Below are positions 1,710 to 60,400 of a stretch of 64,000 nt of DNA, piece after piece (positions within the stretch are counted from its first letter, which is position 1; each line of letters opens with the position of its first letter). This stretch comes from Artocarpus heterophyllus. Taxonomy: Eukaryota > Streptophyta > Magnoliopsida > Rosales > Moraceae. The notes beneath the pieces were generated by a model. That model was not told where the DNA came from. It saw nothing but the letters and a program-made list of their open reading frames with translations, and did not search any database. Where the stretch lies: the NCBI GenBank assembly GCA_025403435.1, contig JAJQZP010000253.1, positions 434,001-498,000 of the forward strand. The letters run 5' to 3'. The position numbers were made by a program, and so were the translations under genes.

Positions 1710-1769
1710 GTTCATGCAATGGCATCTGGAGGGTCAGATTCTTAGACTGGTAACGCGGTTGTCGATGGT

Positions 1770-5150: not shown

Positions 5151-5180
5151 GATGAGTTGTAAATTTCGAGGACGAAATTT

Positions 5181-5198
5181 CTTTTAGGGGTGGAGAGT
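5181..5198 (+). other. Polypurine tract of the Ty3 element
   Basis: A purine-rich run (AGGGGTGGAGAG) lies directly before the TGTAACG start of the 3' LTR. It is preceded by TTTCGAGGACGAAATTTC at 5164-5181, a motif that recurs in the LOG-carrying element at 41360-41400 (minus strand). Confidence 0.85.
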
Positions 5199-10343: not shown

Positions 10344-10364
10344 GTGGCCGGTTCTTCCACAATT

Positions 10365-12056: not shown

Positions 12057-12329
12057 GTCGACCCACGAGACTGATAGTCTCTGTTCCCAATATCACTATT
12101 TTATAATCCTCCGCTTCTTTCAATCTCACGCCCTTGATTTCCTCTCCCTCTCCACTCCAGTACTGCAAAATTCTGATAAAACTCACGATTCTATCTCACC
12201 TTTGTTTCATCTTCCCCATCCCTCTGCTACTATTTCAGTTCCTCAGTTGCTCTCAACTGCTTAGCTTATCTCATTTCTTTTATACAACAAACGGAAAAAA
12301 AGATCGAGAGCAGCCAAGCTTACAAAGCT

Positions 12330-23543: not shown

Positions 23544-23817
23544 CGGTCTAAAGATTGTGATTGTAACATTAATACTTGATTCTTAATTAATAACGTAGAA
23601 AATTGCTCAACCTTTCTCTCATTCTTCTTCTACTCCCTCTCTAAATTCTAAACTCATTAATCTACCCTTATTCCTCTTCTATTTCTCATTTTTCTCTTCC
23701 TTTCTTAGCCCATGTACTACGTCAAATCTACTATTTTTGTGACGTTGACGTAGCGTAAGAATTGGTATATAATTATTATCTACATCTCTTCTTAGCTTCC
23801 AAACCATAATACTAGCC

Positions 23818-26800
23818 ATGGCTAAGGAATGTGTTTCTCACAATTATGTATTGCTTAAGCCAAAAGAAGCCAGTTTTCTTGAGCTAGTTTGTCTATTGTG
23901 TTCATCTGATTTGAAAAAAAGAAGCTTCGTTGAGTGCTCGAAGGAAGAAGGAGATCAATCCATAAACTTTCGCCGGAGATGGATTATCTTTGTTTCCGTT
24001 GCGATGCAGAAGCTCTTTCTTCTCCTCAGAGAGCCTATGGCTCTTCTTGGCGACGCGATAGTGTTGTTCCTCAATCTTCTAGCGTCCAACGGAGGCTTGC
24101 TTGCGCTCTTGAGAAACTATTTTGGAGGTAATTAACTATTAATTAGCTCTTTCTTTATATATTTTGTTAAAAAAAAAAGGTTTCTCTCTTAAGCATCATA
24201 CAAGGTAATATTAAATCCATGTGCTAAAAGTGAATTGAATTGATCTCACTCTGGTGCATGCAATTGCATGAATCTGTTCATAATAATTAACTTCATTAAT
24301 TTACTTATCTTTTTGATTTGTTGAAGACAAATTGTATATGCCTATTTATCATTACCATGTATGTTTATAGACAGAAGATGGCAACAAAATATGCGTCTTT
24401 TTGAATTTAAGATAAAAAGATTTGAGTCTTCACCTTTTTGTAAAGTTAGGTGTACAATTACCTTTGATAAACTAATTTTAAGGGCATAAAAAATTGCATA
24501 GATAACATTTAATCACACAATATATACATACATGTACATGTAAGTTATACAAACATGGTTACTGTAGGAAACCTGGTGAGGCCAGATGAATCATCGTCTG
24601 CATCTGTGTTGGGAAATCTTGATTGGAGAGTGGAGTTAGACAAGAACATTGAACCTAACGATGAGAAGTATAAAGGATCTCTATCCATGATGGCCGCTAA
24701 ATTGGCATATGAGAATGAACATTTCATCAATAGGATAGTCCAAAATCATTGGAAGGTAAGTAGGTCCAACATACTTCCTATTTTTATGTACAAACATAAC
24801 GTAATGTATAGTTCTTTGCCTAACAATGTGATCGGTTGATTAATATTTTAATATTTTCTCTTCAACACTAGATAACCATGAAAAGAAAATGATAAGATTT
24901 TTTTTTTTTTAACTGCAGATGCGCTTCTTAGGGTTCCACAACTTCTGGAATGGTGAGAAAGCCACATTAATTAATTATTCTTTTTCTTAATTTGGAGTTC
25001 TCTCTAGCTATAAGGCAGCATATGGTGGTAATATCTATTTTAAATTGTCTGTACAAACTGTGAAAAAGCGTAACTTCAGAAAATTGAAGATAACCATTAG
25101 TATTAAAAGGTCAAAATGAAGAATATGGTCTTTTTAAGGGGTATAATAGTAAAATTAAAAACTAGAGTGTTGGATCTATGCAACATGGAAGGCTGCTAAA
25201 AAAAAAGTCAAAAATTTCTTTTTTGGGTCAAAGTTAGGCATCCAAACATATGCACACAACAATGTCCTTATCTTTGATAAATTCTAATGATAAATTGTGG
25301 CAGACTGGAAAATATTTATGTTTCAATACTGACCCGCATAATAGTCAAACATAGAAATTTCCTCTTCCTTTCCGAGCAAAGCTTAAGAATATAACTCTAA
25401 TTAAAGACGTTGCATTAGTCATGATAACTAAATTACTAGAGTGAGGAAACCCTAGGATTGCTTGAATGGAGCTGTCTGTCAGTGATGTGTGATTGTTTTT
25501 AGAGGGAAAATAGTTATATGTAATTAATTAATAATCTTATTACTCAGTTAATTAATAAAGGCTGGAGAAATTTGCATATAAAAAATATTAGAATAACCAA
25601 CATTATATTCCAGGTAGGGGAATAACTTGCGTCCCTGCATTTCAATCATGAATTCTTTTTCGCTTTAACCTTATCTGTCCTGTGGGAACATGATGACAAG
25701 GTTCTGAGTCATACTATGTTTTTGAAGTTTAAACCGCACACTTTTTACATGTTTTTACTTTACACAATAACATATTACAGCTTTATATTATTTATGAAAA
25801 TTCAAACCGTCCTCTTAAGTATCTTTTAAATCTCCATAGTACATGTCATGTGATATAATTGCTTTTTCTCTGTAGAGCAAAAATACCTTTTAAATCTCCA
25901 TAATTCATGTCATGTGATATAATTGCTTTTTCTCTGTATAGCAAAAGTAGAAGACCATAATAGGCAATTACCCAGGGGCGGCACCGACAAAGTAGAAACA
26001 AAGTGCTATTAAAGACTAAAATCATAATTAGTGGGACATGTTATTATATAATGGATGATTAGTATAAACTTTTTCTCTCTTTGATCTGCACACCGCACTG
26101 TTTAACCATGTGCTCTGTTTATGAGTTGAACACAATTTAAATCTTTGTACTGCAGTGCTATCTTTTATATAAATTTGAATATATGTTCAAACTTTCCTAT
26201 AAACCAAATGGACATTATGAATAAGAAATTTGAAAGTAGAAGCTTTTGTCTAAGAAAAGCCGAAAAGGAAACAAGCTGTAGTTTGATTAATTCCTTTTAT
26301 TATTTTTTTTCTCCTTCACTGTGTGACCGTTAAAAAAATTACCATGCGTTAACTTTTCTTCCTACTTCAACTAATTTCTTACATTGATTTTTAATTATAA
26401 AATTATGGCTGGAATCATTGGTGGGAAAAGCCGTGCACATGGACAATTTAATTTTGTGTATCTTAATTTAAAGTAGATTGTATACTTAATTGGACTTAGA
26501 CCAGATTGCTTACTTTAATTATCCAAAATTTAAAGTTGAATGCTAAAAATAATTTTGTGCTTTTTTTTTCGGTGGGTGGGGACAGTTAATAAACCAAAAA
26601 ACATTTTGTGCTGTGATTTTTTTTCCTTCTTTTTCGAACGAAAAAAAAAAACCAAAAACCAGAAACATTACCCCAAAAATGACTTTTACCCCCTTTGAAA
26701 AAAAGGACTTATCATAATTTTGTTGCTTGGAAAAGTACTTCAAAACTTCCATATTTGTTTTACGCACGCCTATTTGCAGCGTTTCACTATACTAGCGAGA

Positions 26801-28030
26801 CAATAACATCTGTACACTCCAAAACCCTTGTCTAATGCCTGGCAGGTTACCTAGAAAAGCCTTCAACACCAACCTTCATATTTCAGGACTCAGCAAACGA
26901 CCCTAAATTGATCGTCGTCGCATTCAGAGGCACCGACCCGTTTGACGCTGATGCATGGAGAACAGATTTCGACATCTCATGGTACGAGCTACAAGGGGTC
27001 GGAAAGATCCACCGCGGCTTCGTCAAAAGCCTTGGCCTACAAGAAGACAACACGTGGCCCGCCGAACTAGATCATGATCGACAAGGAGCCGCCGCCAATA
27101 ATGATCAGCAAAACCAGTCCTACGCTTACTATGAAATCAAGAAAATGTTGAAAGCCATGTTGCAAGAGAACAAGGAGTCCAAGTTCTTAGTGACGGGTCA
27201 CAGCTTGGGCGGGGCGTTGGCGATTCTGTTCGTGGCGGGGCTTGCGATCCACGACGAGGACTTTTTGATGGATAGATTGGAAGGGGTTTACACGTTCGGA
27301 CAGCCTAGGGTTGGGGACGAGCAGTTTGGAACGTACATGAAAAAGAAACTATATGACTTTGATGTCAAGTATAGGAGGTATGTTTATTGCAACGACCTTG
27401 TGCCGAGAATCCCTTATGATGACAAAACACTGTTGTTTAAGCACTTTGGGCCTTGCCTTTACTTCAATAGCTACTACAAAGGAAAGGTGCGTTGTTATAA
27501 ATCTATCTCTTTCTTGCTCTTTATAAAAGTCCATTTAACATCATGATTCAAACTAAAAGTTTTTAAACCTAAAATATATACTATAATAATTTAAATTTTA
27601 TGAGAAAAAATATTATAACAAAATAAATTTAATTCAAAATTTTTTTGTTTAAACCATGTTCCAAAACGGACTCTAATTATCTCTTTCAGTTGTGGATAAT
27701 CATATGCATATAATTAATTTTCTGATTGTGAAAATTCAGGTTCTCTGGGAGGAGCCAAACAAGAACTACTTCTCTTTGTTATGGCTCTTGCCAAAGTATG
27801 TAAACGCTGTTTGGGAGTTGATTAGGGGTTTTGTCATTCCACATATAAAAGGGTCAGATTATAAGGAGGGTTGGTTTATGAGAATGCTAAGGGCGGTTGG
27901 TTTAGTGATTCCGGGATTATCAGCTCATAGTCCCTGTGATTATGTCAATCTTACCCGATTGGGATCGTTGCCTTCAATTCCTAGCCTAGAGATCCACCCT
28001 ATTCGTCAAGGAGATTCTAAATTTGATTGA
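23818..28030 (+). CDS. OBL1: Oil-body triacylglycerol lipase, copy A (OBL1-like, five exons)
   Basis: Exons are 23818-24127, 24568-24755, 24919-24952, 26846-27486 and 27740-28030, all with GT-AG introns; the spliced product is 487 residues. Exon 1 encodes a hydrophobic N-terminal region typical of OBL proteins that sit on lipid droplets. Exon 4 carries the class-3 lipase core: [10 protein letters not shown] (oxyanion side), GHSLGG with nucleophile S297, and the Asp of NDLVPRIP (D361). H454 in exon 5 ([10 protein letters not shown]) is the likely third triad member. The enzyme hydrolyses triacylglycerol and related esters and in other plants acts in seedlings and pollen tubes. Exons 2 (188 bp) and 3 (34 bp) equal those of copy B exactly, which fixes the splice model. 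Intron 3 (1893 bp) contains a tandem duplication. No break is seen. Confidence 0.93.
25821..25949. repeat. Tandem duplication in intron 3 of lipase A (64-bp unit x2)
   Basis: TTTTAAATCTCCATA, CATGTCATGTGATATAATTG and CTTTTTCTCTGTA occur twice in the same order, with only a few differences. Confidence 0.9.
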
Positions 28031-37880: not shown

Positions 37881-39381
37881 TTTCATAATTTTTTGTTGTA
37901 ATTAATAACATCTGCAACTTGTCTTTGATTAATTAATCTCATATATATTTATATAATCCTTGCATACAACTTTGGAAATGTGGTACTGCTAAGTGCTAAT
38001 TAAAGTACGTAATCAATTCATCAAAGGGATAAGCCAAAAGCCTAGACAAAGACAACCATGACCAAAACGAAAAAGAAAAAAAAAAAAAAACAATGGTCAC
38101 CAGATATTACTAAGCTGGTTCCACACACACAGTAGTTCGGAAAAACATCCAAAGGAACTCCATTTAAATTAAAAAAAAAATTGTATTACTGAACATATAA
38201 GAACCAGAAAATAGTGATTTAATTTATGACCATTCTAAACTTCAATGGCTTTTGTTACAAATCAAAACTGCTAAGAAAGGTAATAGTATAAAAAAAAGTA
38301 TTAATATTTCTCAATAATCGACAGTTACAAATCCAAAATTAATTTGAGATGGAGCGCAAAAAAAAAAAAAATCTAAGACCATGATATAAACTTCGGATAA
38401 AATACAAATGAACGTCTCTTTAAAAAAAAGAAAAAAAAACTAATTTTAAAATATTTAATTTGACTATTGCATAACAAATAAAGTTTCACAAAAGTTATAC
38501 ATAGTTTTAATAATTTTTGCAGTTTTAATTTAGATAATAGATAAATAGTAGGGTAGACTTTATCATAAGAAATTTTGAAAAAAAATAAAACAATTGATGC
38601 TCTGGACTATTATTGTTACTAGATTCTAAAAAAATAAAATAAGAAAAAGAAAAAAGCAAAGAAAGAATTCAAAAAAGTAAAACAAAGAATGGGTTGTTTT
38701 TAGTAACTTGTTAAGCTTTTCCAAAAACAGCAAAAACAAAGAAAAAGGAGAATACGTAATTGACTAACTATACAAGGGAAATTTAAGTGCCTGACCTAGC
38801 TATAGGAAATGGGAACAGCGTAAAAGCTACTGTTATATAGAAAATGAGATGCAGTACATTCAATAGAGGAACGGGGGGGCCCTTAAAAATTATATATTTG
38901 ATAAAGTATTTAAAAATTATATATTTGATAAAGTACAAATAAAATAAAATTTTATGGTGTGCTTGTTTTATGAGTTTAAATCAAAATTAAGTTTTTAGTT
39001 TAAAGTGGTTTTATTATAGTGTTCTCTTTTACAATGTAAATTATTATACTTTTTCAATTCAAATTACTTTCAATTACAACATATGTATTTTACATTATTA
39101 AAAGGAACAAGGGCCAAAAAAAATAAAAGATAATTATTGTTAGGGTGCTTCTATTGATACTCTTATTCTACTTTTCATACACACTTTCTTCAACCACCCC
39201 TTATTCTACTTCTTACATTTGATGAGTCGATTTTTCATACATAATTGGAATGTCTTTAACTTGATATTTTGATGGTTTTTGCTAGTTTGTCACCTTTTTA
39301 TTTGTTTTGAACGAAGATATGTTCAATACTATGTTTTTAGTGTTTTATATGTTAAGTATATTTTTAGTTATATTTAGGTGT
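37881..39381. other. Intergenic region
   Basis: AT-rich with A-homopolymer runs. A perfect 26-bp direct repeat (TTAAAAATTATATATTTGAT plus AAAGTA) occurs at 38883-38908 and 38910-38935. No gene. Confidence 0.5.
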
Positions 39382-39386
39382 GTTTT

Positions 39387-41359
39387 TGTAACGCCCCTAT
39401 ATGGGGGTTAACAGTTTTTAATGAGATAAAATAAAAATAAATAATAAAAGTAAAACCTTAAAAATAAAATTTGCCCGGGACTTAAATGAAAACTCTCAAC
39501 TCAAAAATAAAAATATAAACGATAAATAAACCACAGTTTAATGTAGCACCTTAAATTTAATAATATAAACTGTTGTCATCATCATTTTAACCCTCAACAC
39601 ATTATAATACAGTCACAGAAAGTAACAATTGATGCTTACATTATCATGAAGAACATTCTTTACAATTGAGCAGTCCCAATGTAATATAGTTACATCGCTT
39701 CCTCAACTATATTTCTCGTAGCCACCTCACACTTAGTGAGTCCTGAAAAGATATAAACATAAGGGAATGAGCAACACTATGCTCAGTAGAGAAAACCATT
39801 ACTCACCTTTAGGTTTTTATCATTACCACATTAAAATCTGCATGGTTAGTAGGTTACATCATATTCCAGATTATGAGGTTTATTATGATCACATCTTATG
39901 GATACCGTAGTTAATCATTACCAAGTGTCATAATTACACATTTATACAAATATTACCAATCATCATTGTTCCTAGGTATCCATGTTAAATTGAGTATCAC
40001 TCAACTCATCGAAACCCAAATGGGCGCACTTGATCACCCTATAAACATTCCAAGGGTGTTCCGGTGAGGGGACATCAAGCCCCGAGTCCTCACCAAATCA
40101 ATTCCTGTACAGTGTGTTCTGGGACTTTCAACCCAAGGAAGCGTCATCACCTTCCCCCTATTTTACCTTTTAGGGTATTCATGCCCAAGGACATAACCGT
40201 CGCCCTTTTCATGTCTCACAATTTCTCTATATTAAATCATTATCAATAGAGTTAGTTTTCCTAACCATGCTTCTCAATTTATAACATGTGTCAATTCATT
40301 ATGTTCCTCGCCGTACAATACAAGACGAGTCCATGTCATAGTTTCATATGTGATACTCATATAATATCAGTTCAACATAGATATATATATATATTGCGGC
40401 AAAACAATCAATTTTAATTCTATAAAAACCTCACAAAAGATGAGTAATAGAATCCCTACCTTTCAAGCTTATCAACAGTCTCTTAATCCTGGAATCAATT
40501 AACGTTAGCTCCATACTCCCTTGATCCTAAGGCGTGCATAAGGACAATTAAAACTAAAGCACAACATACAACTACATTCATAAAATTTATTTTAATTTAA
40601 TCTTAGAATTTCAAGAAATAACCACTGCCCATAGAGGTATTATAAAGTTTAACAATATAAATTTTCTGTCTAGGGCATATACACTTAGACTTCATACATA
40701 TGCTCCAAAATAGCAACAAACATATACTTAGGTTTAAGAACGCAAATTTGAATAATCCTTTAGTATAAAAGAAAATTTATAAATGAAAGACTAAATTTGT
40801 TCATAAGATTCTAACCTCGGATTATGGTTAGTTGGAAGCTTGAAATGGCTTCAAAACAGGTTCCTTTACTTCGGTATGACTGAAATTCTTGCTCAAATGG
40901 AGGTGATGGTGGCTGATTTTTATGGCTGCCTTGAAGAAGTTCTCTAAGTATTTTGCTTCAGCAAAGAAATATGAAGAAGAGTGTGGGAACCGTGGAAGAG
41001 AAAGGAAGAAAAGATGAAGTCTTTGAAGAGAAGTGATAGAAACAATTATAGAGGAGACATGTTGAAGCATGTCACGGAGGAAATAAAGAAAATGAGGGTC
41101 AAGAGTAGTTGGAAAAGATATCCTTATGTCTCATCTAAAGACTTTAACACACATAATGCCAATATGACATTTTTGAGATTTATTAGAAGTTCTAAAGCTT
41201 TTTAGTAATCATACTAAATAAATATAGGAGAATTTTAGAAAATTTAAAAATAGATAAAAATAAATATTATAAAATAAATTTAAATGAAGCAATTTTTTTT
41301 ATACATTAAAAATTAATTTAATTACCTCAATACCCGTTAGGAGAATAACGGGTGTCACA
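39387..41359 (-). repeat. 3' LTR of the LOG-carrying element
   Basis: The plus strand begins TGTAACGCCCC and ends GGGTGTCACA. It carries CCCCTATATGGGG at 39394-39406 near one end and ACCCGTTA-GGAGAA-TAACGGGT at 41332-41353 near the other, each an inverted repeat. It appears identical to 45631-47603 at a constant offset of 6244. Short open frames are duplicated in both LTRs and are noise. Confidence 0.95.
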
Positions 41360-41373
41360 GCTCTACTCCCCTT
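41360..41373 (-). other. Polypurine tract of the LOG-carrying element
   Basis: The minus strand reads AAGGGGAGTAGAGC directly before TGTGACACCC of the LTR. It is preceded by AAATTTCGAGGACGAAATTT (about 41379-41398), which is nearly the same as the sequence before the polypurine tract of the Ty3 element at 5161-5198. Confidence 0.9.
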
Positions 41374-42314
41374 AAAGAAATTTCGTCCTCGAAATTTCAA
41401 TTCTAGCAATACTAGTAAAAATTATGATTCCACTATGATTCCAATTCTGAGTCTAAACCGTTAATGTTGTTTGTCCTCCAAATTTAAGTTATCGTATTTC
41501 CACTTATTTACTTGCATAATAAATCTTACTCCTAAATCCCTCAATAAGAGTATTTCTGACAAGTTTCATCTTATAACACCGTATAATAGTCTAAGAATCT
41601 GATCAGGCATACATATTGACCATATCATGATTCCAGTCCTTCATTGTCCATGGACTGTGATTTACAATCACATTTAAGGAGATTGCTAGAGAAATTTTAT
41701 ATACTTCATCTTTAGGTTCCTTTTCCTTTTTGAGTAAGGAAAAGTCAAATATATTTGATTTCATACCTCAACTAATAAACTAAAACATAATCATAAAACA
41801 TATATCACAAACACTTTTATTCAAAACTACACATTAAACTTACTCATAGAGATATTAAACGGAATCTCAGAGTTGCAAACATACTCGACATATTTTTCAT
41901 TAAACAGCTATCCTCATGACACAAACATTCAACCCAAATAATAAACTCATATTTCATATGGAATATCCCCATAACTGACTCTGGTACTTCCACATAATAT
42001 TAACCGAATATTACACATTACAAACATGATACTGTTACATTTCGAGAGTACAAGGCACTCCGTATACCAGCTATCCATATCATGCATGCTTAGAGGATAC
42101 AAAAACATCGATAAACAAAAGATCGGACCTTAAGAAGGATGCGTTTCGAGAGCATCAAGTACTCCGTATCCAGCCATCCCGGCATTAGGCTCAATGAATC
42201 TAAAAGATTGAACAACAACGTACCACAAGAAACACAGAATACAAGGCAAACGGTTATTCGTAACATACGAAATACGGACACACATGCCTACATGCCAAAG
42301 ATAAAACAAAAAGA
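41374..42314 (-). other. 3' noncoding part of the LOG-carrying element
   Basis: About 0.94 kb without a convincing ORF. TTTCGAGAG followed by a CACTCCGTATACCAGC-like phrase occurs twice, at about 42039-42076 and 42145-42181, as an imperfect direct repeat some 105 bp apart. Confidence 0.6.
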
Positions 42315-42965
42315 TTACAGATGGAGATTCAAATCAATTGGCCGCTCCCGGCTTTCCCTTTCCCATTCAAGCTTGGATGTTGCAGTGTCGGATTCTGGAT
42401 GTATGATTTGCATTTTATCTATCAATTCCTCAGCTGTTGAAGCAGTGACAAAGATTTGTCTCTCCGATTCTGTAGTGATGTTTTCTTCCACAGCGTAATC
42501 TAGAAATTTCAAAAGACCGTCATAAAAACCCTTTACATTCAGCAGTCCCAAAGGTTTGGAATAAAAGCCCAACAATTGCCCACAAGCAACTATAAATATT
42601 TCCTCAAGAGTACCTAGACCACCAGGTAATGCTATAAAAGCATCAGAATTATAGATTATGTCTTTAAAATTTCTAGGGATACTCCTGACTCCTTCTCCCT
42701 TACCTATGGCTTCCTTACAAAGGTTTCCTTCAACTGGAATATGAGGCCAAATTCTTACATCAGTAGCGTCGCTAGACCTAGCTGCTAGTGCCATATTTAC
42801 CATCATTTTTATACTACCACCCCCATAGATTATGTTAATCTTCTTGCGTGCTAGGACTTGCCCTAAGTGATTTGCAGCTTCTAAATAAGCTTTATCTTTT
42901 CCAAGGCTGGAACCACAAAAGACACAGACATTCTTTATTTTCTTCGTGGACTGGGAGGTAGACAT
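42315..42965 (-). CDS. LOG: LOG-family (cytokinin-activating) enzyme homologue inside a retrotransposon
   Basis: The ATG at 42965 gives 216 residues in one exon; the reading frame upstream of it has only a GTG. LOG enzymes release active cytokinin bases from riboside monophosphates in the cytosol. Visible family features are the start VCVFCGSSLG, the Rossmann segment IIYGGGS (44-50), and SDAFIALPGGLGTLEE (107-122) with the PGGxGTxxE signature at 114-122. Next come KPLGLLNVKGFYDGLLKFLD and a C-terminal helix, giving nearly the full usual length. Differences are GGGSIKMM where plant LOGs have GGGSxGLM, and R98-N-F-K101 where the family usually has an adjacent Arg-Lys before SDAFI. There is also an extra residue around ACGQLLGF. 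Host LOG genes have several introns; none is here, suggesting a processed copy. No stop or frameshift is present. Activity is unproven. Confidence 0.88.
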   Translation of the reverse strand: MSTSQSTKKIKNVCVFCGSSLGKDKAYLEAANHLGQVLARKKINIIYGGGSIKMMVNMALAARSSDATDVRIWPHIPVEGNLCKEAIGKGEGVRSIPRNFKDIIYNSDAFIALPGGLGTLEEIFIVACGQLLGFYSKPLGLLNVKGFYDGLLKFLDYAVEENITTESERQIFVTASTAEELIDKMQIIHPESDTATSKLEWERESRERPIDLNLHL

Positions 42966-43611
42966 ATTTGGTTTATAGAAGTGGTTGCTTAATGTCTGCT
43001 CCACTTAGACTTCGGGTTCTACATGAGATTTTAAAGATGAGAAATATACAAAAAGGGCTAAAGAGATAGACGAGTAGGTAATGAAAAGGTAATCCAAAGA
43101 TTTAAACAAAATCTTGTGCGGATAAGAAAGTAAGATAAGGTGATTGATAGTTTACAGAAAATCTGATTCACTTTTTGAAAAAGATTAGACTCTAATTGTA
43201 TAACTTTTGACAATTGAGAACAATTCGACAGAAGACCCTCATGACACAACTGTAGACTTTTTGACAAATATACACCAAGTCTAGAAATTTAATATAAACG
43301 ACAAATACTGTAGAACTTTTGAAATTTGAGACACAAATCTTGAAATATCTGGATAAGTTTTTTCAAAATTCAAACATATTACTGTACCGTATGTAACGTG
43401 TCTGATAAGATAATATATTTTATTATATATATATATTTAAGAAAATCATAAATTAAATAAGATATTAACACTTACTGTATCAATCTAATAATCACAATTA
43501 TTTCAAACACAAAAGCAAATATTCTGAGTAAAAGAAAAACACAAACTGTTGAACATCAGCTAAAACTGCTTCAAATAAGTAAAGACTAAATAACCTTTAT
43601 AGTGCGATGAC
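42966..43611 (-). other. Spacer between the two cargo ORFs
   Basis: AT-rich, 646 bp. A 69-codon open frame (43058-43267) has no recognisable features. How the downstream LOG-like ORF would be expressed (spliced RNA, second promoter or other) cannot be told. I see no compelling TATA box. Confidence 0.5.
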
Positions 43612-44133
43612 TTATTCCCTATCCAGTTTTCTTATGGCTTGACAAACAGGATCTAGAAATACCATATTCCTGAGGCGTTGTCTTTCTGTATAAAATTTAG
43701 GCCAGAGTTTAAAAATAGCTCCTTGAACATATCCACTAGGGTGACCGTGGAGAGGAGGATGGATGCTATCCAAGTTCTCCTTTGAAAGTCCATCCCTACA
43801 AAACCTTATTTTATCCTCTCTATTCGTAGACATATAACCAGGTGAAGTACATTTACCGTTACAATTTTGTCTTCCACATTTGTTACAAGTGACCACGATG
43901 GCACGAGCTCTTCTTTTCATTGCACTACGACTGGTACCTGTTCCTGGTAAACCGACATCTTGACTAAAGTCACTCGGACGGATTTTCCCCTCTATCAACA
44001 TTCTCACATCACAAGGGATACCAAAACGCATAAGAATCCACAACCGAGTAATTCTAGCCTTGTATTTCTTTCTAAGAATCTTTTGGGAGAGTGATGGGAA
44101 ATACTTTCTCATGTGTTGGTACTTTGGGTCCAT
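43612..44133 (-). CDS. Basic Cys-cluster protein of unknown function, first ORF of the retrotransposon
   Basis: The ATG at 44133 gives 173 residues. The N-terminal third is strongly basic (K/R-rich, 9-36), and a GLPGTGTS turn lies at 61-68. The basic K73-R-R-A-R77 is followed by four cysteines C83, C86, C91 and C95 (C-x2-C-x4-C-x3-C) and a PGYMS motif. The C-terminal half has GHPSGYVQGAIF and is moderately basic. This is not a gag zinc knuckle: the third ligand is Cys and the spacing is different. Basic stretch plus compact Cys cluster suggests nucleic-acid binding. The arrangement recalls the small cysteine-rich nucleic-acid-binding proteins of plant flexiviruses, but that is a weak pattern match. 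It lies in the position gag would occupy. The open frame is intact. Confidence 0.75.
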   Translation of the reverse strand: MDPKYQHMRKYFPSLSQKILRKKYKARITRLWILMRFGIPCDVRMLIEGKIRPSDFSQDVGLPGTGTSRSAMKRRARAIVVTCNKCGRQNCNGKCTSPGYMSTNREDKIRFCRDGLSKENLDSIHPPLHGHPSGYVQGAIFKLWPKFYTERQRLRNMVFLDPVCQAIRKLDRE

Positions 44134-45604
44134 GATGAGATGAAAGAAGAGTAAATAGAAAGGAAAAATTAAGATAGTAAATTGCAGAATCCTAGAATTC
44201 CTTCTTCTTTTAGAGGAAAAGAAGAATTTCTAATGAAAAAGAAGAGGATTTACGATTTAGAGAGAAAATAACAAATTAAGAGAGAAAAAGTGAACTCGGA
44301 GAAATAAGCTCCTATGCACAGTAAACGTATATGTAAACAATGATTAAACCACTGTATATGACACGTATAGAGACCACGTGGGAGAGACAGTGTGAATCAA
44401 ACTGATTTAGGATTTAAACTAGGCCCAAATGTTCTAAGTTGAAAATGGTCAGGTTGTTTCGGGCCTTAACACATTTAGAACGAGTTAAATAACAAACATA
44501 AAATTGAAAACCAATTTGTATAAATCTTAAACCCAATTCAAAGTCCACTATAGATAAGTTAACTATGAACAACAAATCTAATTTAACGACAACAAGGATC
44601 TTCCTGAATGATATTTAAAATCATTTCATAACAACACAATCTTCCAGCAACTCAAATGATTTTGTTTTAATCAAAACTTTATTGAACAATACATACACCC
44701 ATATGTTATTCATAATACTTAACATCTATCAATGGATTCATCACCATTACTACCAAGGGTTTAGAATGCGACTAACCTTGAAATCAATACGATTTACGTC
44801 TTTCAACGTAGACCATATCAATGAACAAAGACACTAGATGTTACTACTTAAGAACATCTACAATCCCCACAATTCTACTCATACAATATATAATTTCCTC
44901 ATATAACAAAACCTTAGGTAACCAAAAGATTCACTGATACACTTAAATACAATGTACGTAACAAAATATTCCAATTTTGAGATTCATGCATTCTAGACTT
45001 TACACAGTCTCAACAGACCAAAAGTCTAACATTTATCTCTCTCAAGATTCAATACCATGATTCCCAACTTATATCATATTCCTCAAATAAATAGAACTTT
45101 CAAGAAAAGATATTGACACTTATGTGCTCCATCGAATCCACACATAATCATTACTTAGGTTTGAATCAATTACGAAAAATTTGGCATATCTATGTCAAAC
45201 TTTAAAATCAATAAATCAAGCCTTATATATATATATTTTTTTATTGTTTTTCACGAGACAAAAGGCTCTTAAATCCTCGTATCTACACGAATTTCTCATC
45301 GTTTATACGAATTAGATATGCTTATAGATCCTAATATTATACGAATCTCTCATAAGCATTCTACTTATAAACTCATTTCATATAATTATCATTCCCTCAT
45401 AACTATTAATACTTTCCTTCTATATAATTATTGTACTCATATAACCATTAGTATTTTCATTCTATGGCCTTTCCATGTTACATCCTTCTAAACTGTATAA
45501 ATCAATGTGAAGGTTCATTTTGATGATGACAGTGAAAATTCAGCTTCAAAACCATCTCAAAAATATATTTTTTTAAAGTGGTGCTACACTCCCTAGGTTA
45601 ACCG
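44134..45604 (-). other. Leader of the LOG-carrying element
   Basis: About 1.5 kb between the primer-binding site and the first ORF, with no coding remnant of gag or pol that I can see. Long leaders of this kind often contain packaging signals in non-autonomous elements, which here is inference. A (TA)n run lies at about 45223-45235. Confidence 0.6.
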
Positions 45605-45605
45605 A

Positions 45606-45623
45606 ACCTAGGCTCTGATACCA
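45606..45623 (-). other. Primer-binding site of the LOG-carrying element
   Basis: The minus strand reads TGGTATCAGAGCCTAGGT, seven bases after the end of the 5' LTR. It matches the initiator tRNA-Met 3' end over at least the first 13 bases. Confidence 0.92.
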
Positions 45624-45630
45624 AAAATTC

Positions 45631-47603
45631 TGTAACGCCCCTATATGGGGGTTAACAGTTTTTAATGAGATAAAATAAAAATAAATAATAAAAGTAAAAC
45701 CTTAAAAATAAAATTTGCCCGGGACTTAAATGAAAACTCTCAACTCAAAAATAAAAATATAAACGATAAATAAACCACAGTTTAATGTAGCACCTTAAAT
45801 TTAATAATATAAACTGTTGTCATCATCATTTTAACCCTCAACACATTATAATACAGTCACAGAAAGTAACAATTGATGCTTACATTATCATGAAGAACAT
45901 TCTTTACAATTGAGCAGTCCCAATGTAATATAGTTACATCGCTTCCTCAACTATATTTCTCGTAGCCACCTCACACTTAGTGAGTCCTGAAAAGATATAA
46001 ACATAAGGGAATGAGCAACACTATGCTCAGTAGAGAAAACCATTACTCACCTTTAGGTTTTTATCATTACCACATTAAAATCTGCATGGTTAGTAGGTTA
46101 CATCATATTCCAGATTATGAGGTTTATTATGATCACATCTTATGGATACCGTAGTTAATCATTACCAAGTGTCATAATTACACATTTATACAAATATTAC
46201 CAATCATCATTGTTCCTAGGTATCCATGTTAAATTGAGTATCACTCAACTCATCGAAACCCAAATGGGCGCACTTGATCACCCTATAAACATTCCAAGGG
46301 TGTTCCGGTGAGGGGACATCAAGCCCCGAGTCCTCACCAAATCAATTCCTGTACAGTGTGTTCTGGGACTTTCAACCCAAGGAAGCGTCATCACCTTCCC
46401 CCTATTTTACCTTTTAGGGTATTCATGCCCAAGGACATAACCGTCGCCCTTTTCATGTCTCACAATTTCTCTATATTAAATCATTATCAATAGAGTTAGT
46501 TTTCCTAACCATGCTTCTCAATTTATAACATGTGTCAATTCATTATGTTCCTCGCCGTACAATACAAGACGAGTCCATGTCATAGTTTCATATGTGATAC
46601 TCATATAATATCAGTTCAACATAGATATATATATATATTGCGGCAAAACAATCAATTTTAATTCTATAAAAACCTCACAAAAGATGAGTAATAGAATCCC
46701 TACCTTTCAAGCTTATCAACAGTCTCTTAATCCTGGAATCAATTAACGTTAGCTCCATACTCCCTTGATCCTAAGGCGTGCATAAGGACAATTAAAACTA
46801 AAGCACAACATACAACTACATTCATAAAATTTATTTTAATTTAATCTTAGAATTTCAAGAAATAACCACTGCCCATAGAGGTATTATAAAGTTTAACAAT
46901 ATAAATTTTCTGTCTAGGGCATATACACTTAGACTTCATACATATGCTCCAAAATAGCAACAAACATATACTTAGGTTTAAGAACGCAAATTTGAATAAT
47001 CCTTTAGTATAAAAGAAAATTTATAAATGAAAGACTAAATTTGTTCATAAGATTCTAACCTCGGATTATGGTTAGTTGGAAGCTTGAAATGGCTTCAAAA
47101 CAGGTTCCTTTACTTCGGTATGACTGAAATTCTTGCTCAAATGGAGGTGATGGTGGCTGATTTTTATGGCTGCCTTGAAGAAGTTCTCTAAGTATTTTGC
47201 TTCAGCAAAGAAATATGAAGAAGAGTGTGGGAACCGTGGAAGAGAAAGGAAGAAAAGATGAAGTCTTTGAAGAGAAGTGATAGAAACAATTATAGAGGAG
47301 ACATGTTGAAGCATGTCACGGAGGAAATAAAGAAAATGAGGGTCAAGAGTAGTTGGAAAAGATATCCTTATGTCTCATCTAAAGACTTTAACACACATAA
47401 TGCCAATATGACATTTTTGAGATTTATTAGAAGTTCTAAAGCTTTTTAGTAATCATACTAAATAAATATAGGAGAATTTTAGAAAATTTAAAAATAGATA
47501 AAAATAAATATTATAAAATAAATTTAAATGAAGCAATTTTTTTTATACATTAAAAATTAATTTAATTACCTCAATACCCGTTAGGAGAATAACGGGTGTC
47601 ACA
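45631..47603 (-). repeat. 5' LTR of the LOG-carrying element
   Basis: Appears identical to 39387-41359. The following GTTTT (47604-47608) is the target duplication. Confidence 0.95.
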
Positions 47604-47608
47604 GTTTT

Positions 47609-49380
47609 TGTGTCTTTAATATCTCATTTGTGTGCAGTCGGCTAAGACGGCAAGTCTATAAGCAGTATTTGTGTTTATGTGGTTTTATTAGTTTTTGTTT
47701 AGTTTTGTTTTTATAAAATAATTAGTTTTTCTGGTTTACTTGGAAGGAAATATAAAAGCTGAGTCGAAAACGGAGGAGAAAAGTGCAAAGAAAACTACCA
47801 AATGGCGTCAAAATTGAAATAAAACCAAAGAAGAAATCAGCTCTCCTTGTGCATGTGAGCTGGCACCAATTCCATGCCTTTTTCTTCAAAATTTGACGCG
47901 GACCCCACAATTATTTTACGCATTAGAAGACAATTGCTGCTTGCTTTCTTTCCAAGCGTGCATCTCAAAATGTCATTTGGTGCTTGTGCTTAATTACACA
48001 GATTGCATTGAATAGATGGCTGCCGAGTAAGCTCTCATTAGGGATCAATTTTTTTGTGAAAAATTAAGCCTCTTGGAGGCTATAAATGCCGCTTCAGGCG
48101 TCGATCCCAGCTTTCCTAAGCTCTTCAGTAAGTAGTGCTTTCTAAGCTCTGCCGTGGAGCATTCAATGCTCCAGAAAAAAGGAGAGAGAAAGAAGAAGAA
48201 AAGGAAAAAAAAATATTTTTTTATAATGTTTTATAAATGTACTAGTTTGAGAGTTAAACGGTTTTGTCAGAAAGAAGACCTGCTAAACTTGTTTACATTT
48301 CGGATCATTTTTAAACTCTATCTTTCTAATATATTAATGTTTATGTTAATATTTTTGTGGTGTGCTATTATTATTATATTTTAGTTTTATTTTTTGTTGG
48401 AATTATGATATAGCTAAAATATATGAATATTTTATTTAGTTAAATTATATTGTTATAAACCTCATGTTTATATTGAGTATTTATATTGTACTTAATCCTT
48501 CAATTAACTGATCACTAGTTATATGATAACATAAATTATAATAAAACTGAGAGGAGATTTTTGATTTAAGGACATATGTAGAATACCATAAATTACATGT
48601 AAGATAAAGATAAACTTACATGATTTGTGTAATCACAATAAGGATTACCACAAAGCATAATAAACTTAAGCATAATTAATTCATGTGGACATATAGTGTG
48701 TTTTAATGCCTAGATATTTTTAGTGTATCTTGAGAGAAAGCACTGAATAAGATAGGGAATTCGACCATTAATAATATATGAGACAATTACGATAATATGT
48801 TTAATTAAATAGGATTGGATTAATTTTAGTGAAATCATAATTCTTAATATTTTTGAGATTTATTTATTTTCAACATTTTTTCTTTTAAACTTTTTTTTTC
48901 ATTTTCTTTTCTTTTTAGAATTCAAATCTTGGTTATTCCAATAATCTTAGAGTTAAACAATTTTGGTAGTTAATAAAAATTAATGCAATCCCTGTGGCAC
49001 GACATCTAAACTCCGGTATACTTTATTATTTGAAATGATTACGTGCATTACGTATTCGAAATTGTACAACAACATGCTTTCTAAAATGCCAATAAAGTCC
49101 CTACACCTAAATAATAGTATTAATTTTCCGTTTTCCACACACTACTAAATAAACTTATATTTTTTTTAAATGGTTCTCTTTTTTAGCTTATATATTAAGT
49201 GATATTTTTTTTCTTAGTATAATTGTATTTCTTTTTAATAAACCAAAATTTGGATTGTAGGAAATAAATCGATAGTGTGTGAATCGAACAAATTGTACTT
49301 CCTTTACCTAAAAACAAGAAAGAGAACATACTTTTTCTTTTTTGTATATCATGTTCTTTATATCAAACAAAAGTGTGGTT
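47609..49380. other. Intergenic region
   Basis: Between about 48060 and 48180 lie GCCTC-TTG-GAGGC, CTATAAATG and GGAGCATT-C-AATGCTCC, two small hairpins around a TATA-like site. No ORF follows, so no gene is called. The rest is AT-rich. Confidence 0.45.
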
Positions 49381-56000: not shown

Positions 56001-56197
56001 GGAGGGACCTTCGTTGTAGAAATATGCAAGGGGTTTGGAAAACAACACCAAAGACATCGAATGGTGTAATATTATAGGGTTGGGGTTTTGGGTAGAGAGA
56101 ATTTGAAAGGGTATAGGTTGGCCACATAAATTCGGTTCTACTTTCATATATCTTTTATTTGCTAAAAAATTTGCCTATCCTTTACAAAAAAAAAAAA

Positions 56198-57055
56198 ATG
56201 GCTTACCAAAAGGGGCCTAAAGTTCGCAATTATCTATTGATTAAGCCAAAAGAAGCTAGTTTTGCTCAGTTCATCCGTCTTCTCTTCTCCTCAAACTTAA
56301 ACAACATAAGATTCATTGAGTTCTCGGAAGAAGAAGGGCAGAAACTCAAAGAGAGCCTTATCTTCAGACTTGTCATAATAGCATCTGCTTTCGTGCAGAA
56401 GCTCCTACTTAAATTAAGAACTCCCATGGCTAAGATTGGAGATCTCATTGAGTCCTTTCTTAATATTTTAACAGTCAACGGCGGCTTAATTGGGCTCTTG
56501 AAAAACTTAACCACAGGTTATAAATTCTCTTCCTATAATTATTTCCTTGTCCCTGACTAGTAATTTTTCATATTAATTTTTCATGCAAGCTACATGATGT
56601 TACTAACTTCTCATGCATTATATCCATATTTCATTATATATGAAATTCATTTTAGTTGTACGTATGCATTTTGATTTTTTGAGGGCATAGCACATGCATA
56701 TATATATATATATATATATATATGTCTTATGTATATGTGTGTGTAATTCATATATATGTCTTATGTAAATATATATATGGATATATAAAATATATATGCA
56801 CACACACACATATATATAAGTAATGGATGGAGGAGTTGGTATGCAGGGAAGGTAGTGTTGCCGGATCCAATAAGATCTGCATCCGTGATTGGAAACCTTG
56901 ATACAAGAGTGAATTTAGACAAGACCATTACTCCCGACGACGATAAATATTTGGGAGCGCTATCTATGATGGCTGCTAAATTGGCGTACGAGAGTGCTGC
57001 TTACGTCACAAACGTTGTTCAGCTTCATTGGAAGGTGATCAACGAAATATATATG

Positions 57056-57090
<35 letters not shown>

Positions 57091-57392
57091 TTACATGTAT
57101 AGAAACTGAATTAGCTCTTTGCTCATTTCAAAATGTTGCTCAATAATATTTTAATCATTTGTACGCACACAGAGATATTTATCTATCTATATATATATAT
57201 ATATATATATTAGGTTTATGATGAAAAGTAATATACGTTGATGAGTTGAACACTAATATACCTTTTCCTGATTTTGTCTGCAGATGCAATTCTTGGGGTT
57301 CTATAATTACTGGAATGGTGAGAATGCAAGCTAACTAACTGCATATTCATCTTCTTATACATTCATATATATGGATATGAATATCCGCATTG

Positions 57393-57436
<44 letters not shown>

Positions 57437-60400
57437 GTTTGGAAAGTGGTGGCTTTCTAAAATCTTAAAAGAAAGAATGCCGTTTGTGGAATTTTCTCTC
57501 TTCGGACAAAGTTGAGCTGACGTGCATACATGAACATAAAAATGGGTCACTAAAATAATGCCAAAAAAAATATAATATAAATACAGCTTTTTCCTCACAC
57601 GCTCACAAAATAAAGTGGGATAAGATTGATGTTTGATGCTTGTTAAACCTGATTTAACCACTTTGTTTCATAATTTATTTATCATGATCATGACTAATAA
57701 TTGAAATTTGTGGAGAAGGTAAAAGCTCTGGTTGCTTCGCAAGATCTCTTTGTAAAATGACCTTAATGCTAAATTATAATTTTTGAATTAGACGTTTTAT
57801 TTCTTTCACTCCAAAAAATTTTAATTTATATGTTTTTGATGGCCGACTATTGAGTTTTTAATGGCCGCTATTCTAAGTTTTTTAGGTGATATTTAATTCC
57901 TTTTGACTATACATATTGACAAAATTATATTATAGCATTCTAGAAATTGTGTTAAATATTTTGCACATCTTATTTCAACATATAATTTAAAATAGTACAA
58001 AGCACAAAACATTATTTCTATGAAAGTAATTTCACACAGGATTCCACCAAAATGTATAAAGTTGAAATTCCTATCTTTAATTTCAAAAAAAAAACATTAT
58101 TTCTCTTTATATCAAAAGAAAAGAAATCAATGTTTTTTTATATCATACTATTTTCTTTCTCTTGAGAAATTTTATTTTTAATACCTCTTTATTTTGAAGA
58201 ATGGAAAAACACATCTGCCCTCTTTTTTTTTTTTTTTTTTCTTTTAAACTGTGCAAGGGAATTTTGAACTCTAAATCTTGTGATGGGGTTTAGTATTGAA
58301 TAATTGTTATGCTTTCAATCACGTATTGTGCAGCTTTGAGTTAGTTCAAGTTACTCAACTATATTATTTTACATTTTGTTTGGTAGGAAGGACAGGGAGT
58401 AGGAGGGGTGGAGAAGAGGAAGGACAGAGAGGATTGTAGTAATTTTTTATATTACTTTGTTAGGATGAAAGGAGAATTAAAAGGATAAATAAAAGTTATT
58501 TATGAAATTATTATAAAGTACATTTATAGTGATTATAATTATTTATTTAGAGGATAAAATAGTCTTTTAAAAATTTAAAGTGATAAATTAGTTGGATCCT
58601 TCCATTGATGGAAGGATCCAATTTGGTGGGCCATGTGGAGGGCTACATCCCTTCTCACTACTCCTTCCTCCTCTCCCTCTAACCAAACAAAAGGTTTAAT
58701 CTCTCCTTCTATCTCTCTCCCTCCACCTCTCTCCCTCTCCCATCTCTCCCTCTTATCAAACATAGTGTTAAAGAAATTATGACTTCCTCTATTTTTATTA
58801 TTTTGCCCCCTCTCTAAATTTTTCTTTAAAAATTTCCATTCACACATTTAGTTATTTATAAAGTATAACAAAAAATTATAAAGACAACTGATATTAAAAC
58901 AAAAAATGTTCAAAAAATAAATAAAAAAAAGATTATGAGATCTTTAGCATTTATTATACTATTAATTTTATTTCAAGTATGTGTCCCCGCATGTTTCTAT
59001 GTTAGAGATCCAATAGAATAATAATTGAAAAGAATGTGATGAAACCATGAGATATTTTAATTACTAATAAAAATATTTATTTATATCCCACCAAAAATTA
59101 TCCTAATTAACTCCTCTATCGAACTACCAAACTTACATTTACTACAGTCTACCATCCTTTCCCTTGTTTGTCTCAAAAAAAACAAATAACAAAAAGCAAA
59201 AAACCTTTTCTTTGCAATTACATGACAAAAAAGACAACCCTAATTAAAACCCTTGTCTCCAATGCATCTGCGCAGATTTCCTTGGAACATTTTCCACACC
59301 AGTTTTCCTGTTTCAAGACGCAAAGATCAACGCCAAACTAGTAGTGGTGGCCTTTAGAGGCACCGATCCGTTTAGCGCCGATGGGTGGAGCACCGACATC
59401 GATCTGTCATATTACGAGATCGAGAACGTCGGAAACGTCCACCGCGGATTTGCCAAAGCCCTCGGCATAATCCAAAACGACAACACTATGCCCTCCCAGT
59501 TGTTGGAACAAGGCAAAGACGGCATTGACTTGAAACCCTATGCTTACTATGAGATTGTGAAGCAGCTCAAGAGCATACTTCTTCTCAACCCCAATGCCAA
59601 GTTCATAGTGACGGGGCACAGCTTGGGCGGTGCATTGTCGGTGATGTTCGCGGCGGCGCTGGCGATGCACGGCGAGGCAGATTTGCTCGGCAAGTTGGAA
59701 GGTGTTTACACTTATGGACAGCCTAGGGTTGGAGATGAACAGTTTGGGACATACATGGAACAGAAACTGTCAAAGTACAATTTGAGTTACAATAGGTATG
59801 TATACTCCTTCGACATAGTGCCAAGGATCCCCTTTGATGACAAAAGTTTCTTGTACAAGCACTTTGGGAAATGCCTCTTCTTCAACAGCCAATACAAGGG
59901 GAAGGTAAATTTTTAAGTCACTCTTTCACTCTTTAGATATATTATCTTTACATCTCAAAAATTTAGGATATATATTCAGATATCAATACTTTAAATAAAT
60001 AAGTAAATAACATTATGGTCAACTGACTCAGTGTTTCCTTTTAATAATTCAAGTTTTTATTAACCCAAGGATCATGACTAAAGTGAATTTTATGATTGAA
60101 ATTCAATAGGGCATCAGTACAGCTAGCTAGAGGCATAGCTATCCATGGATGAGAGTAGGCGGTCCTTTTGATTTTTTTTTTTTCATTTTGCATATAAAAT
60201 TTTATAAAATTTATATTTTGCTCCATTAAAATTGTATTTCGTGCCTCTCAAAAAGGAAAATTTATATATCTTTATTTGCATCATCTTATTGGTCCGTTCA
60301 CATCCTTGTTTCTCTTACTAATTTTTGTGGTTTCGCTCCTATTAACAATATTATCACACATTAACAAAAGATGAATCATGTAATTATATAGGACCCACAA

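What the first reader, a model, noticed from the sequence alone, without database searches (positions are those of the whole stretch)
39387..47603. LTR retrotransposon in which two cargo ORFs replace gag-pol
The element has every cis-feature needed for retrotransposition: twin LTRs, tRNA-Met primer site, polypurine tract and target duplication GTTTT. It has no visible gag or pol. Its interior instead holds a Cys-cluster ORF and a LOG-like ORF, both intact and both in the sense direction. Non-autonomous LTR elements with captured genes are known, but one carrying a full-length cytokinin-activation-family enzyme plus a second conserved-looking ORF is not something I know to be described. If the pair is found together in other copies, it would be a gene-carrying retrotransposon family rather than an accident.
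Basis: partly seen in the sequence, partly recalled or inferred. Interest (0 to 1): 0.9.

Follow-up and report, generated by a model that had tools for sequence, protein, structure and literature searches.

The report
Retrotransposon carrying virus-like and hormone genes
This is a young, many-copy plant jumping element that has no genes for its own copying machinery but carries two genes, one resembling a plant-virus nucleic-acid-binding protein and one resembling a hormone-activating enzyme, and the two stay together in the young and old copies examined.

Summary
Observation confirmed: an 8,217-bp LTR element (39387-47603, sense = minus) with identical 1,973-bp LTRs, TSD GTTTT, tRNA-Met PBS and PPT, no gag-pol, and two sense ORFs. 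It is a family. In the window's own 985-Mb genome, 52 of 52 other distinct loci examined carry the pair in the same order and strand: 14 of 14 chosen by LTR, 28 by the Cys ORF, 10 of 10 diverged ones by the LOG-like ORF. Eight copies with both ends found have 5-bp TSDs and 0-0.2% LTR divergence. The Cys ORF belongs to a large plant family (855 hits) resembling flexivirus Carla_C4/Viral_NABP proteins. The LOG-like ORF falls in a clade apart from the five host LOGs sampled, mostly with an EAR-type LxLxL tail. The Cys ORF is under purifying selection; LOG was over deep time, but here residues 58-117 are heavily altered and the catalytic Arg column is Asn, so it is probably not a normal cytokinin enzyme. 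LOG (YgdH) domains in LTR elements are already in print; the viral-type partner, the pairing without gag-pol and the EAR tail were not found. Function is inferred.

The parts
39387..47603 (-). whole non-autonomous LTR retrotransposon, 8,217 bp, sense on minus strand
   Evidence: identical LTRs, TSD, PBS, PPT; other copies
45631..47603 (-). 5' LTR, 1,973 bp
   Evidence: identical to the other LTR
39387..41359 (-). 3' LTR, 1,973 bp
39382..39386 (.). target-site duplication GTTTT, left copy
47604..47608 (.). target-site duplication GTTTT, right copy
45611..45623 (-). primer-binding site TGGTATCAGAGCC (tRNA-Met type)
   Evidence: tRNA-Met PBS usage in PMC6317226 passages
41360..41373 (-). polypurine tract AAGGGGAGTAGAGC; 37 nt at this end match the window's own Ty3 element at 5161-5197 (92%)
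43612..44133 (-). ORF 1, CRP: 173 aa, Carla_C4/Viral_NABP-like protein
43903..43917 (-). basic cluster KRRAR (residues 73-77), nuclear-localisation-like
   Evidence: nearly invariant columns in A3; [KR]3A[KR] in 101 of 125 proteins
43849..43887 (-). C-x2-C-x4-C-x3-C cluster, CNKCGRQNCNGKC (residues 83-95), zinc-finger-like
   Evidence: C..C.R..C...C in 100 of 125 family proteins
42315..42965 (-). ORF 2, LOG-like: 216 aa from its ATG (frame open from 43004)
42654..42833 (-). altered patch of LOG (residues 58-117 of the 229-aa frame): GGGSIKMMV, catalytic Arg column = Asn, high dN and dS against older copies
42318..42341 (-). C-terminal EAR-type tail PIDLNLHL (LxLxL)

Best explanation
Shown: a young, multi-copy, non-autonomous LTR retrotransposon family in which the only coding content found is a virus-type cysteine-rich nucleic-acid-binding protein (CRP) and, downstream in the same sense, a LOG-like protein with an EAR-type tail; the pair is older than the young family. 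Inferred: a foreign element, most likely of the Tekay (chromovirus) type, supplies Gag, RT and integrase in trans, using the element's tRNA-Met PBS, PPT and LTR ends. Inferred: the CRP is the conserved accessory factor that counters host small-RNA silencing or binds element RNA/DNA in the nucleus, as viral CRPs do, so a copy pays for its ride by making the cell permissive. Inferred: LOG-EAR acts on cell state, originally by making active cytokinin and/or engaging the TOPLESS co-repressor; in the young subfamily the nucleotide-binding half has changed so much that the enzyme is probably dead and any remaining role is non-enzymatic.
For: Anatomy. Pair, same order and strand: 14/14 LTR-selected, 28/28 distinct CRP-selected, 10/10 LOG-selected diverged loci, the last with CRP 66-96% and LOG 61-73% aa identity to the window (best stretch); an old relative (L078) has LTR remnants (75-81%) around the pair and no gag-pol hit. 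Recent activity: LTR divergence 0-0.2% and 5-bp TSD in the 8 of 14 copies where both ends were found. Selection: 14 LTR-selected copies plus window, CRP N/S 0.25 (p 1.6e-4); deep pairs 0.16-0.28 for both ORFs; 0 indels in 1,173 bp of ORF against 18 distinct in 3,098 bp non-coding (P 0.001). CRP: Carla_C4 hit by 15 and Viral_NABP by 13 of 16 members at E<=0.1, best 1.9e-7; viral CRPs as silencing suppressors and a transcription factor: PMC12172455 passages. Tail: LxLxL in the last 20 residues of 94 of 120 LOG homologs against 46 of 2000 shuffled; old copies keep DLNLx. Helper: PPT match and LTR/PBS likeness to the window's Ty3 element; tRNA-Met is used by most chromoviruses, not by other Ty3 elements (PMC6317226 passages).
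Against: No function was tested. The window's CRP is below both Pfam cut-offs (16.4 of 23 bits; 13 of 20.9), and the viral structure matches are not significant (E 0.94, 1.2). LOG selection inside the young family is weak: N/S 0.53, p 0.20, one inner stop in 15 copies. Of the ten diverged loci, five have inner stops in LOG and three have a broken CRP frame, as old insertions would. tRNA-Met is also the primer of copia lineages, so the PBS alone does not fix the helper. In the one other plant-like locus (L001) the CRP follows a Ty3 integrase frame and no LOG was found in its record, though that empty answer had no positive control. There are 37 ATGs between LTR and CRP, so how CRP is translated is unexplained. 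No transcript evidence.
Confidence: 0.5

Rival explanations
1. The two ORFs are passengers: a LARD-like element that lost gag-pol and happens to carry leftovers of accessory ORFs; its success comes only from good cis-signals.
For: LOG in the young family shows weak constraint (N/S 0.53, p 0.20) and an altered nucleotide-binding half. Cis-signals are complete.
Against: CRP purifying selection, no indels in either ORF in 14 copies against 18 in non-coding DNA, deep dN/dS 0.16-0.28 for both ORFs, pair kept in an old relative.
Confidence: 0.2
2. CRP is a mobilisation or packaging factor (nucleic-acid chaperone in the particle) rather than a silencing suppressor, and LOG-like is a structural partner.
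For: CRP is a basic, Cys-cluster protein of nucleic-acid-binding type; an element without gag must be packaged by a foreign Gag. Other plant Ty3 elements carry accessory ORFs with unknown roles (PMC7264820, part 1 of 3 read).
Against: A helper Gag would bring its own nucleocapsid (the window Ty3 gag has a zinc knuckle). CRP also occurs after a Ty3 integrase frame in L001, though whether that element is complete is unknown.
Confidence: 0.2
3. LOG-EAR works as an ordinary cytokinin-activating enzyme that makes host cells divide, so germ-line or meristem cells with active copies multiply.
For: LOG fold (2a33, TM 0.86 to target), PGGxGTxxE intact; older copies keep GGGSLGLMG exactly or with one change, and the Arg. 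CVB p12 induces hyperplasia (PMC12172455 passage).
Against: In the amplified subfamily the catalytic Arg column (R in 41 of 43 others) is Asn and GLMG is lost; 23 of 83 conserved columns depart, median of rows 4; low model confidence at residues 81-110.
Confidence: 0.15
4. The LOG patch came by recombination: residues 58-117 were replaced from another, unsampled LOG copy, so the protein may still be functional in another way. (This can be true beside any of the others.)
For: Sharp patch with dN 0.48 and dS 0.50 against L077, whose residues 118-229 are at dN 0.05-0.07 and dS 0.07-0.12.
Against: dN is nearly equal to dS in 6 of 10 comparisons, unlike exchange between working LOG genes (0.16-0.28 here); residues 14-57 also have raised dS (0.29 against L077); no donor was sought.
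Confidence: 0.35

Closest known systems
Plant Ty3/gypsy elements with additional ORFs (aORF/eORF; PMC7264820 part 1 of 3, PMC6317226 passages)
   Same: Extra ORFs of unknown origin kept in most copies of a family; L001 shows the same CRP family right after a Ty3 integrase frame.
   Different: Here no gag-pol is seen and the extra ORFs are the only coding content found.
LTR retrotransposon consensuses with a YgdH (LOG) domain in Citrus and Populus trichocarpa (PMC9289625 passages, citing Steinbauerova 2011, not seen)
   Same: A LOG-type domain inside Gypsy-type elements; Populus LOG proteins are among the nearest relatives here.
   Different: That screen started from the reverse-transcriptase domain, so RT-less elements would be missed; no viral-type CRP (term 'carla' absent), pairing or EAR tail in the passages read.
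LARD (large retrotransposon derivatives; recalled)
   Same: Long LTRs, several-kb interior, no gag-pol, trans-mobilised.
   Different: LARDs are defined as non-coding (recalled); this one has two conserved ORFs.
Carlavirus/allexivirus/vitivirus cysteine-rich NABP (PF01623, PF05515)
   Same: Basic cluster followed by a Cys cluster; significant Pfam hits for family members.
   Different: 173-182 aa, longer than the viral proteins (recalled), encoded by retrotransposons; the window member itself is under the cut-offs; activity unknown.
VANDAL VANC anti-silencing proteins (PMC13317346 passage)
   Same: A TE-encoded accessory protein that counters silencing of its own family.
   Different: DNA transposon, unrelated protein; anti-silencing is only inferred here.
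Host LONELY GUY enzymes (LOG3, LOG8)
   Same: Fold and PGGxGTxxE motif.
   Different: Separate supported clade, mostly with an EAR-type tail; active-site half altered in this subfamily.

Membership tests
LTR retrotransposon, non-autonomous | twin LTRs, TSD, PBS, PPT | tested here: met
   5-bp TSD in the 8 of 14 further copies where both ends were found
LTR retrotransposon, non-autonomous | no gag-pol | tested here: met
   (three gag/pol probes, no hit at 1e-4 in loci L016-L078)
LARD | interior without conserved coding capacity (definition recalled) | tested here: not met
   two ORFs under constraint
Tekay/Del chromovirus lineage | tRNA-Met PBS and PPT/LTR ends like a Tekay-type element | tested here: met
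   PMC6317226 passages (copia lineages use tRNA-Met too); the Tekay label of the window Ty3 is recalled
Tekay/Del chromovirus lineage | RT/INT phylogeny | not testable with these tools
   no RT in the element
Ty3 elements with additional ORFs | gag-pol plus aORF | tested here: not met
   no gag-pol here; in L001 an integrase frame precedes the CRP
Viral CRP/NABP (PF01623/PF05515) | profile match above curated cut-off | tested here: inconclusive
   window member below; L001 member 33.9 bits against 23 for PF05515 and 20.8 against 20.9 for PF01623; 15 and 13 of 16 members match at E<=0.1
Viral CRP/NABP (PF01623/PF05515) | basic cluster plus Cys cluster | tested here: met
Viral CRP/NABP (PF01623/PF05515) | same fold as viral members | tested here: inconclusive
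   best BFVD hits are named RNA silencing suppressors of two plant viruses but E 0.94 and 1.2
Viral CRP/NABP (PF01623/PF05515) | RNA-silencing suppression | not testable with these tools
   bench assay needed
LOG phosphoribohydrolase | LOG fold and PGGxGTxxE | tested here: met
LOG phosphoribohydrolase | catalytic Arg and GGGSxGLMG loop | tested here: not met
   Asn at the Arg column, GGGSIKMMV; older copies have it exactly or with one change
EAR-motif protein | LxLxL at the C-terminus | tested here: met
   DLNLHL; LxLxL in 94 of 120 homologs
EAR-motif protein | TOPLESS binding | not testable with these tools
   bench assay needed
Recent transduction of a host gene | close identity to a host LOG | tested here: not met
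   clade apart from LOG3/LOG8 and Solanaceae LOGs (97/98 support); only five host-type LOGs in the tree, and this genome's own host LOGs were not looked for

The most novel reading that the evidence does not exclude
A long-lived lineage of 'satellite' retrotransposons that have given up their own replication genes and live by supplying a borrowed virus-type silencing suppressor, together with a LOG-derived, TOPLESS-recruiting protein that resets host hormone or repression state, to themselves and to the autonomous elements that copy them: a counter-defence package spreading without an engine.
Probability: 0.3. Interest if true: 0.9.

Novelty: new variant of a known kind. Interest (0 to 1): 0.72.

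Why it matters
Non-autonomous LTR elements are usually read as parasites that only need cis-signals. A young many-copy family that keeps two accessory proteins and no replication genes suggests that an accessory function can matter more than the engine, and it points to a plant-virus-type CRP as a widespread plant protein family (855 hits), retrotransposon-borne where context was seen. It gives a direct test of whether plant retrotransposons encode silencing suppressors, and the EAR-tailed LOG clade gives a second, separate test. A domain screen that starts from reverse transcriptase (PMC9289625) would not see such elements.

Tried and rejected
IMG/VR searches with CRP and LOG queries gave no plant relatives; 14 distant viral LOG-like loci (L002-L015) were not used. 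The prokaryote genome collection gave one plant-like contaminant contig (L001); no LOG was found in its record, without a positive control. Rfam at gathering thresholds: nothing in 39000-48000. A compensated frameshift was considered for the LOG patch and rejected: other frames are full of stops and the alignment stays in register. Whole-ORF neutral decay of LOG is unlikely: 25 of 500 neutral simulations kept an open frame at only 30% aa change. Exact contig-length coincidences between 120 LOG and 124 CRP rows: five. A LOG (P0081) and a CRP (P0141), both on JGI contigs of 4,511 bp, are a hint only (expected by chance 0.05 above 3 kb, same source); two (905, 734 bp) cannot hold both genes; one (1,309 bp) joins different sources; one is a Xanthoceras chromosome with distant locus tags. 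The first tree, without old copies, put the window LOG on a branch of 1.39; with old copies its end branch is 0.36. Copy number was not obtained: the pattern search did not complete. The Fisher p rests on hand-tallied blocks (16/24 against 7/59) and is not used; the plain block counts are 15 of 23 at residues 60-119 against 8 of 60 elsewhere. The indel and dN/dS samples are small, copies share ancestry, and AT-rich non-coding DNA may gain indels faster, so P values are rough.
Full report
WHAT IS THERE. The window holds an 8,217-bp LTR retrotransposon at 39387-47603 whose sense strand is minus. The two LTRs (1,973 bp) are identical; the flanks carry GTTTT on both sides; the sense LTR begins TGTGACACCC and ends GGGCGTTACA; PBS TGGTATCAGAGCC lies 7 nt inside the 5' LTR and the PPT AAGGGGAGTAGAGC abuts the 3' LTR. 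Probes for Ty3 gag and pol and a copia piece found nothing in it. The interior has two ORFs of note, both in sense: 173 aa (43612-44133) and LOG-like, 216 aa from its ATG (42315-42965).

ORF 1 IS A VIRUS-TYPE CRP. On its own it hits Viral_NABP (E 0.009) and Carla_C4 (E 0.1), both under cut-off. Its relatives make the case: of 16 aligned members (window included), 15 hit Carla_C4 and 13 Viral_NABP at E<=0.1, best 1.9e-7; a profile search finds 855 proteins at E<=1e-3 among 2,380 candidates, the 120 listed including Populus, Xanthoceras, Acer, Hibiscus, Rhamnella and Orobanche genes. A basic cluster [KR]3A[KR] is in 101 of 125 and C..C.R..C...C in 100 of 125 of the proteins fetched. The model (mean pLDDT 75.5, pTM 0.41) has as its two best viral matches proteins named RNA silencing suppressor (Cowpea mild mottle virus, Helleborus mosaic virus; carlaviruses by recall), but not significantly (E 0.94, 1.2). 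Viral CRPs are described as silencing suppressors, and CVB p12 also as a transcription factor that induces hyperplasia (PMC12172455, passages). In one other plant-like contig (L001, a contaminant of a MAG record) a CRP ORF (50% identical) follows a 496-aa Ty3 integrase frame in sense; a stop precedes that frame and the contig begins 103 nt before it, so whether the element is complete is unknown. The Athila label for that frame is recalled.

ORF 2 IS A LOG RELATIVE WITH AN EAR-TYPE TAIL AND AN ALTERED ACTIVE-SITE HALF. It matches Arabidopsis LOG3 (2a33) by sequence (E 2e-43) and by fold (E 6e-17). Of the 120 homologs listed, 94 have LxLxL in the last 20 residues against 46 of 2000 shuffled ends; the five Solanaceae host-type LOGs in the list do not. 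That this is a TOPLESS-binding EAR motif is recalled knowledge. In trees the clade that holds the EAR-tailed proteins (and P0019, a shorter record without the tail) stands apart from LOG3, LOG8 and three Solanaceae LOGs. Against the clade, the window LOG departs at 23 of 83 columns conserved at 85% or more (median of the 45 rows 4): 15 of 23 such columns at residues 60-119 and 8 of 60 elsewhere. The Arg column (R in 41 of 43 others; Arg and Glu are held critical, PMC8234997 passages) is Asn and GLMG is lost, while PGGLGTLEE is intact.

IT IS A FAMILY. The window's genome (985,004,640 bases, 334 contigs) was searched with 601 bases of LTR: 40 hits were scored of 872 candidates. They contain the window pair, 14 other LTR pairs and 10 single hits. 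All 14 pairs were fetched: 14 of 14 hold both ORFs full length; of the single hits only L018 and L019 were looked at. A CRP search scored 150 of 5,808 candidates, all 150 at 98-100% identity, 149 without a stop; of 29 such loci cut out besides the window, 29 hold LOG too, one of them (L067) being the same element as L033, so 28 distinct. A search with a Populus-type LOG (P0028), which favours copies with a more ordinary LOG, scored 150 of 5,817 candidates; 10 of 10 loci cut out have CRP upstream, with CRP at 66-96% and LOG at 61-73% aa identity to the window; 5 of the 10 have inner stops in LOG and 3 a broken CRP frame. Order and strand are the same in 53 of 53 rows, 52 distinct loci. One of the ten, seen over 9.8 kb (L078), has LTR remnants of 75-81% identity around the pair and no gag-pol hit. 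No locus of L016-L078 hit the three gag/pol probes at 1e-4. These samples are chosen by similarity and are not a census.

IT IS YOUNG AND THE ORFS ARE KEPT. Both LTR ends were found by motif in 8 of the 14 copies: 8 of 8 have a 5-bp TSD and LTR divergence 0-0.2% (4 without a mismatch); the other 6 were not measured. In the 14 plus the window, variants give N/S 0.25 for CRP (p 1.6e-4 against neutral) and 0.53 for LOG (p 0.20, one stop). With the CRP-selected copies added the pairwise ratios are 0.12 and 0.34, but that set is biased to intact CRP and holds one duplicate; two of its LOGs have a 1-nt length change. Neither ORF has an indel in the 14 copies, against 18 distinct indels in 3,098 bp of non-coding interior; 6.8 were expected in the ORFs. 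Between deep relatives (L069 and L072 against the window and seven other loci) dS is about 0.7-1.05 and dN/dS 0.16-0.27 for LOG and 0.17-0.25 for CRP. Against nearer old loci (L070, L074, L075, L077) the non-coding parts are 88-95% identical, CRP 95-97% and LOG only 79-83%. These loci were picked for a P0028-like LOG, so part of that contrast is built in by the choice; what it shows is that two LOG types exist on nearly the same backbone. The excess sits in residues 58-117, where dN is 0.40-0.51 in all 10 comparisons and dS is 0.48-0.54 in 6, 0.76 in 3 and 0.22 in 1, while in L077 residues 118-229 have dN 0.05-0.07 and dS 0.07-0.12. The loop reads GGGSLGLMG in L069, L070, L073 and L074 and differs by one residue in L068, L075 and L077. 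So the amplified subfamily carries a LOG whose nucleotide-binding half was either replaced by recombination or drifted freely for a time.

HOW IT MOST LIKELY WORKS. Transcription from the LTR, priming by tRNA-Met and integration by a foreign enzyme follow from anatomy. The helper is probably a Tekay-type chromovirus: tRNA-Met is used by most chromoviruses and by copia lineages but not by non-chromovirus Ty3 elements (PMC6317226 passages); the last 37 nt before the 3' LTR match the window's own Ty3 element (92%), whose LTR end and PBS (GGGGCGTGACA-GAA-TGGTATCAGAGC) are alike too. That element has open gag and pol frames, but nothing shows that it is the helper. CRP as silencing suppressor or nuclear nucleic-acid-binding factor is inferred from homology. 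LOG-EAR as a regulator of cytokinin or of TOPLESS-dependent repression is inferred; for this subfamily a non-enzymatic role is the better guess.

WHAT IS KNOWN. Extra ORFs in plant Ty3 elements are well known (PMC7264820, part 1 of 3 read; PMC11963269, outline and passages). A YgdH (LOG) domain has been reported in Citrus Gypsy consensuses and, with a looser filter, in Populus trichocarpa (PMC9289625 passages); its source, Steinbauerova 2011, is not held, so nothing of it was seen and it may hold more. The PMC9289625 screen took reverse transcriptase as its marker, so it would not list elements like this one. A search for Carla_C4, Viral_NABP, PF01623 or PF05515 gave two papers, both on glyoxalase-type gene families by their titles; searches joining retrotransposons with LOG, EAR motif/TOPLESS, carlavirus CRP, YgdH/aORF or anti-silencing terms showed no description of the pair in their listings. 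The 2026 review of gene capture has no occurrence of 'viral' or 'cytokinin' (PMC13317346, passages). Only open-licence papers were searched. Hence: a new variant of a known kind.

Noticed in passing
456-5197 (+): A Ty3 element with open gag (397 aa) and pol (1,134 aa) frames, tRNA-Met PBS at 456 and PPT within 5161-5197; its cis-signals resemble those of the studied element, so its type is a helper candidate.
   Followed up: partly
42654-42833 (-): Sharp 180-nt patch of the LOG ORF with raised dN and dS against older copies while the rest is closer; recombination from an unknown donor or a spell of free drift.
   Followed up: partly
L027, L029, L030, L032, L037: Copies with a longer LTR start-to-start spacing (6.6-6.75 kb instead of 6.2 kb), apparently a longer LTR, but the same two ORFs.
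   Followed up: partly
L001:104-2347: Plant-like contaminant contig in a Candidatus Nomurabacteria MAG record: Ty3 integrase frame followed by a CRP ORF.
   Followed up: yes
9194-10928 (-): Pieces that look like copia gag and integrase in several frames (label recalled, no call).
   Followed up: no
12180-13178 (+): Long open frame that looks like a bHLH transcription factor (HEC-like; label recalled, no call).
   Followed up: no
23773-27546 and 56117-60792 (+): Two copies of what look like class-3 lipase genes with similar exon pieces, possibly a tandem duplication (label recalled).
   Followed up: no
42070-42165 (-): Weak similarity (E 0.99) to the CRP tail downstream of LOG; perhaps a relic, perhaps chance.
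   Followed up: no
L002-L015: Distant LOG-like proteins on 14 IMG/VR viral contigs.
   Followed up: no
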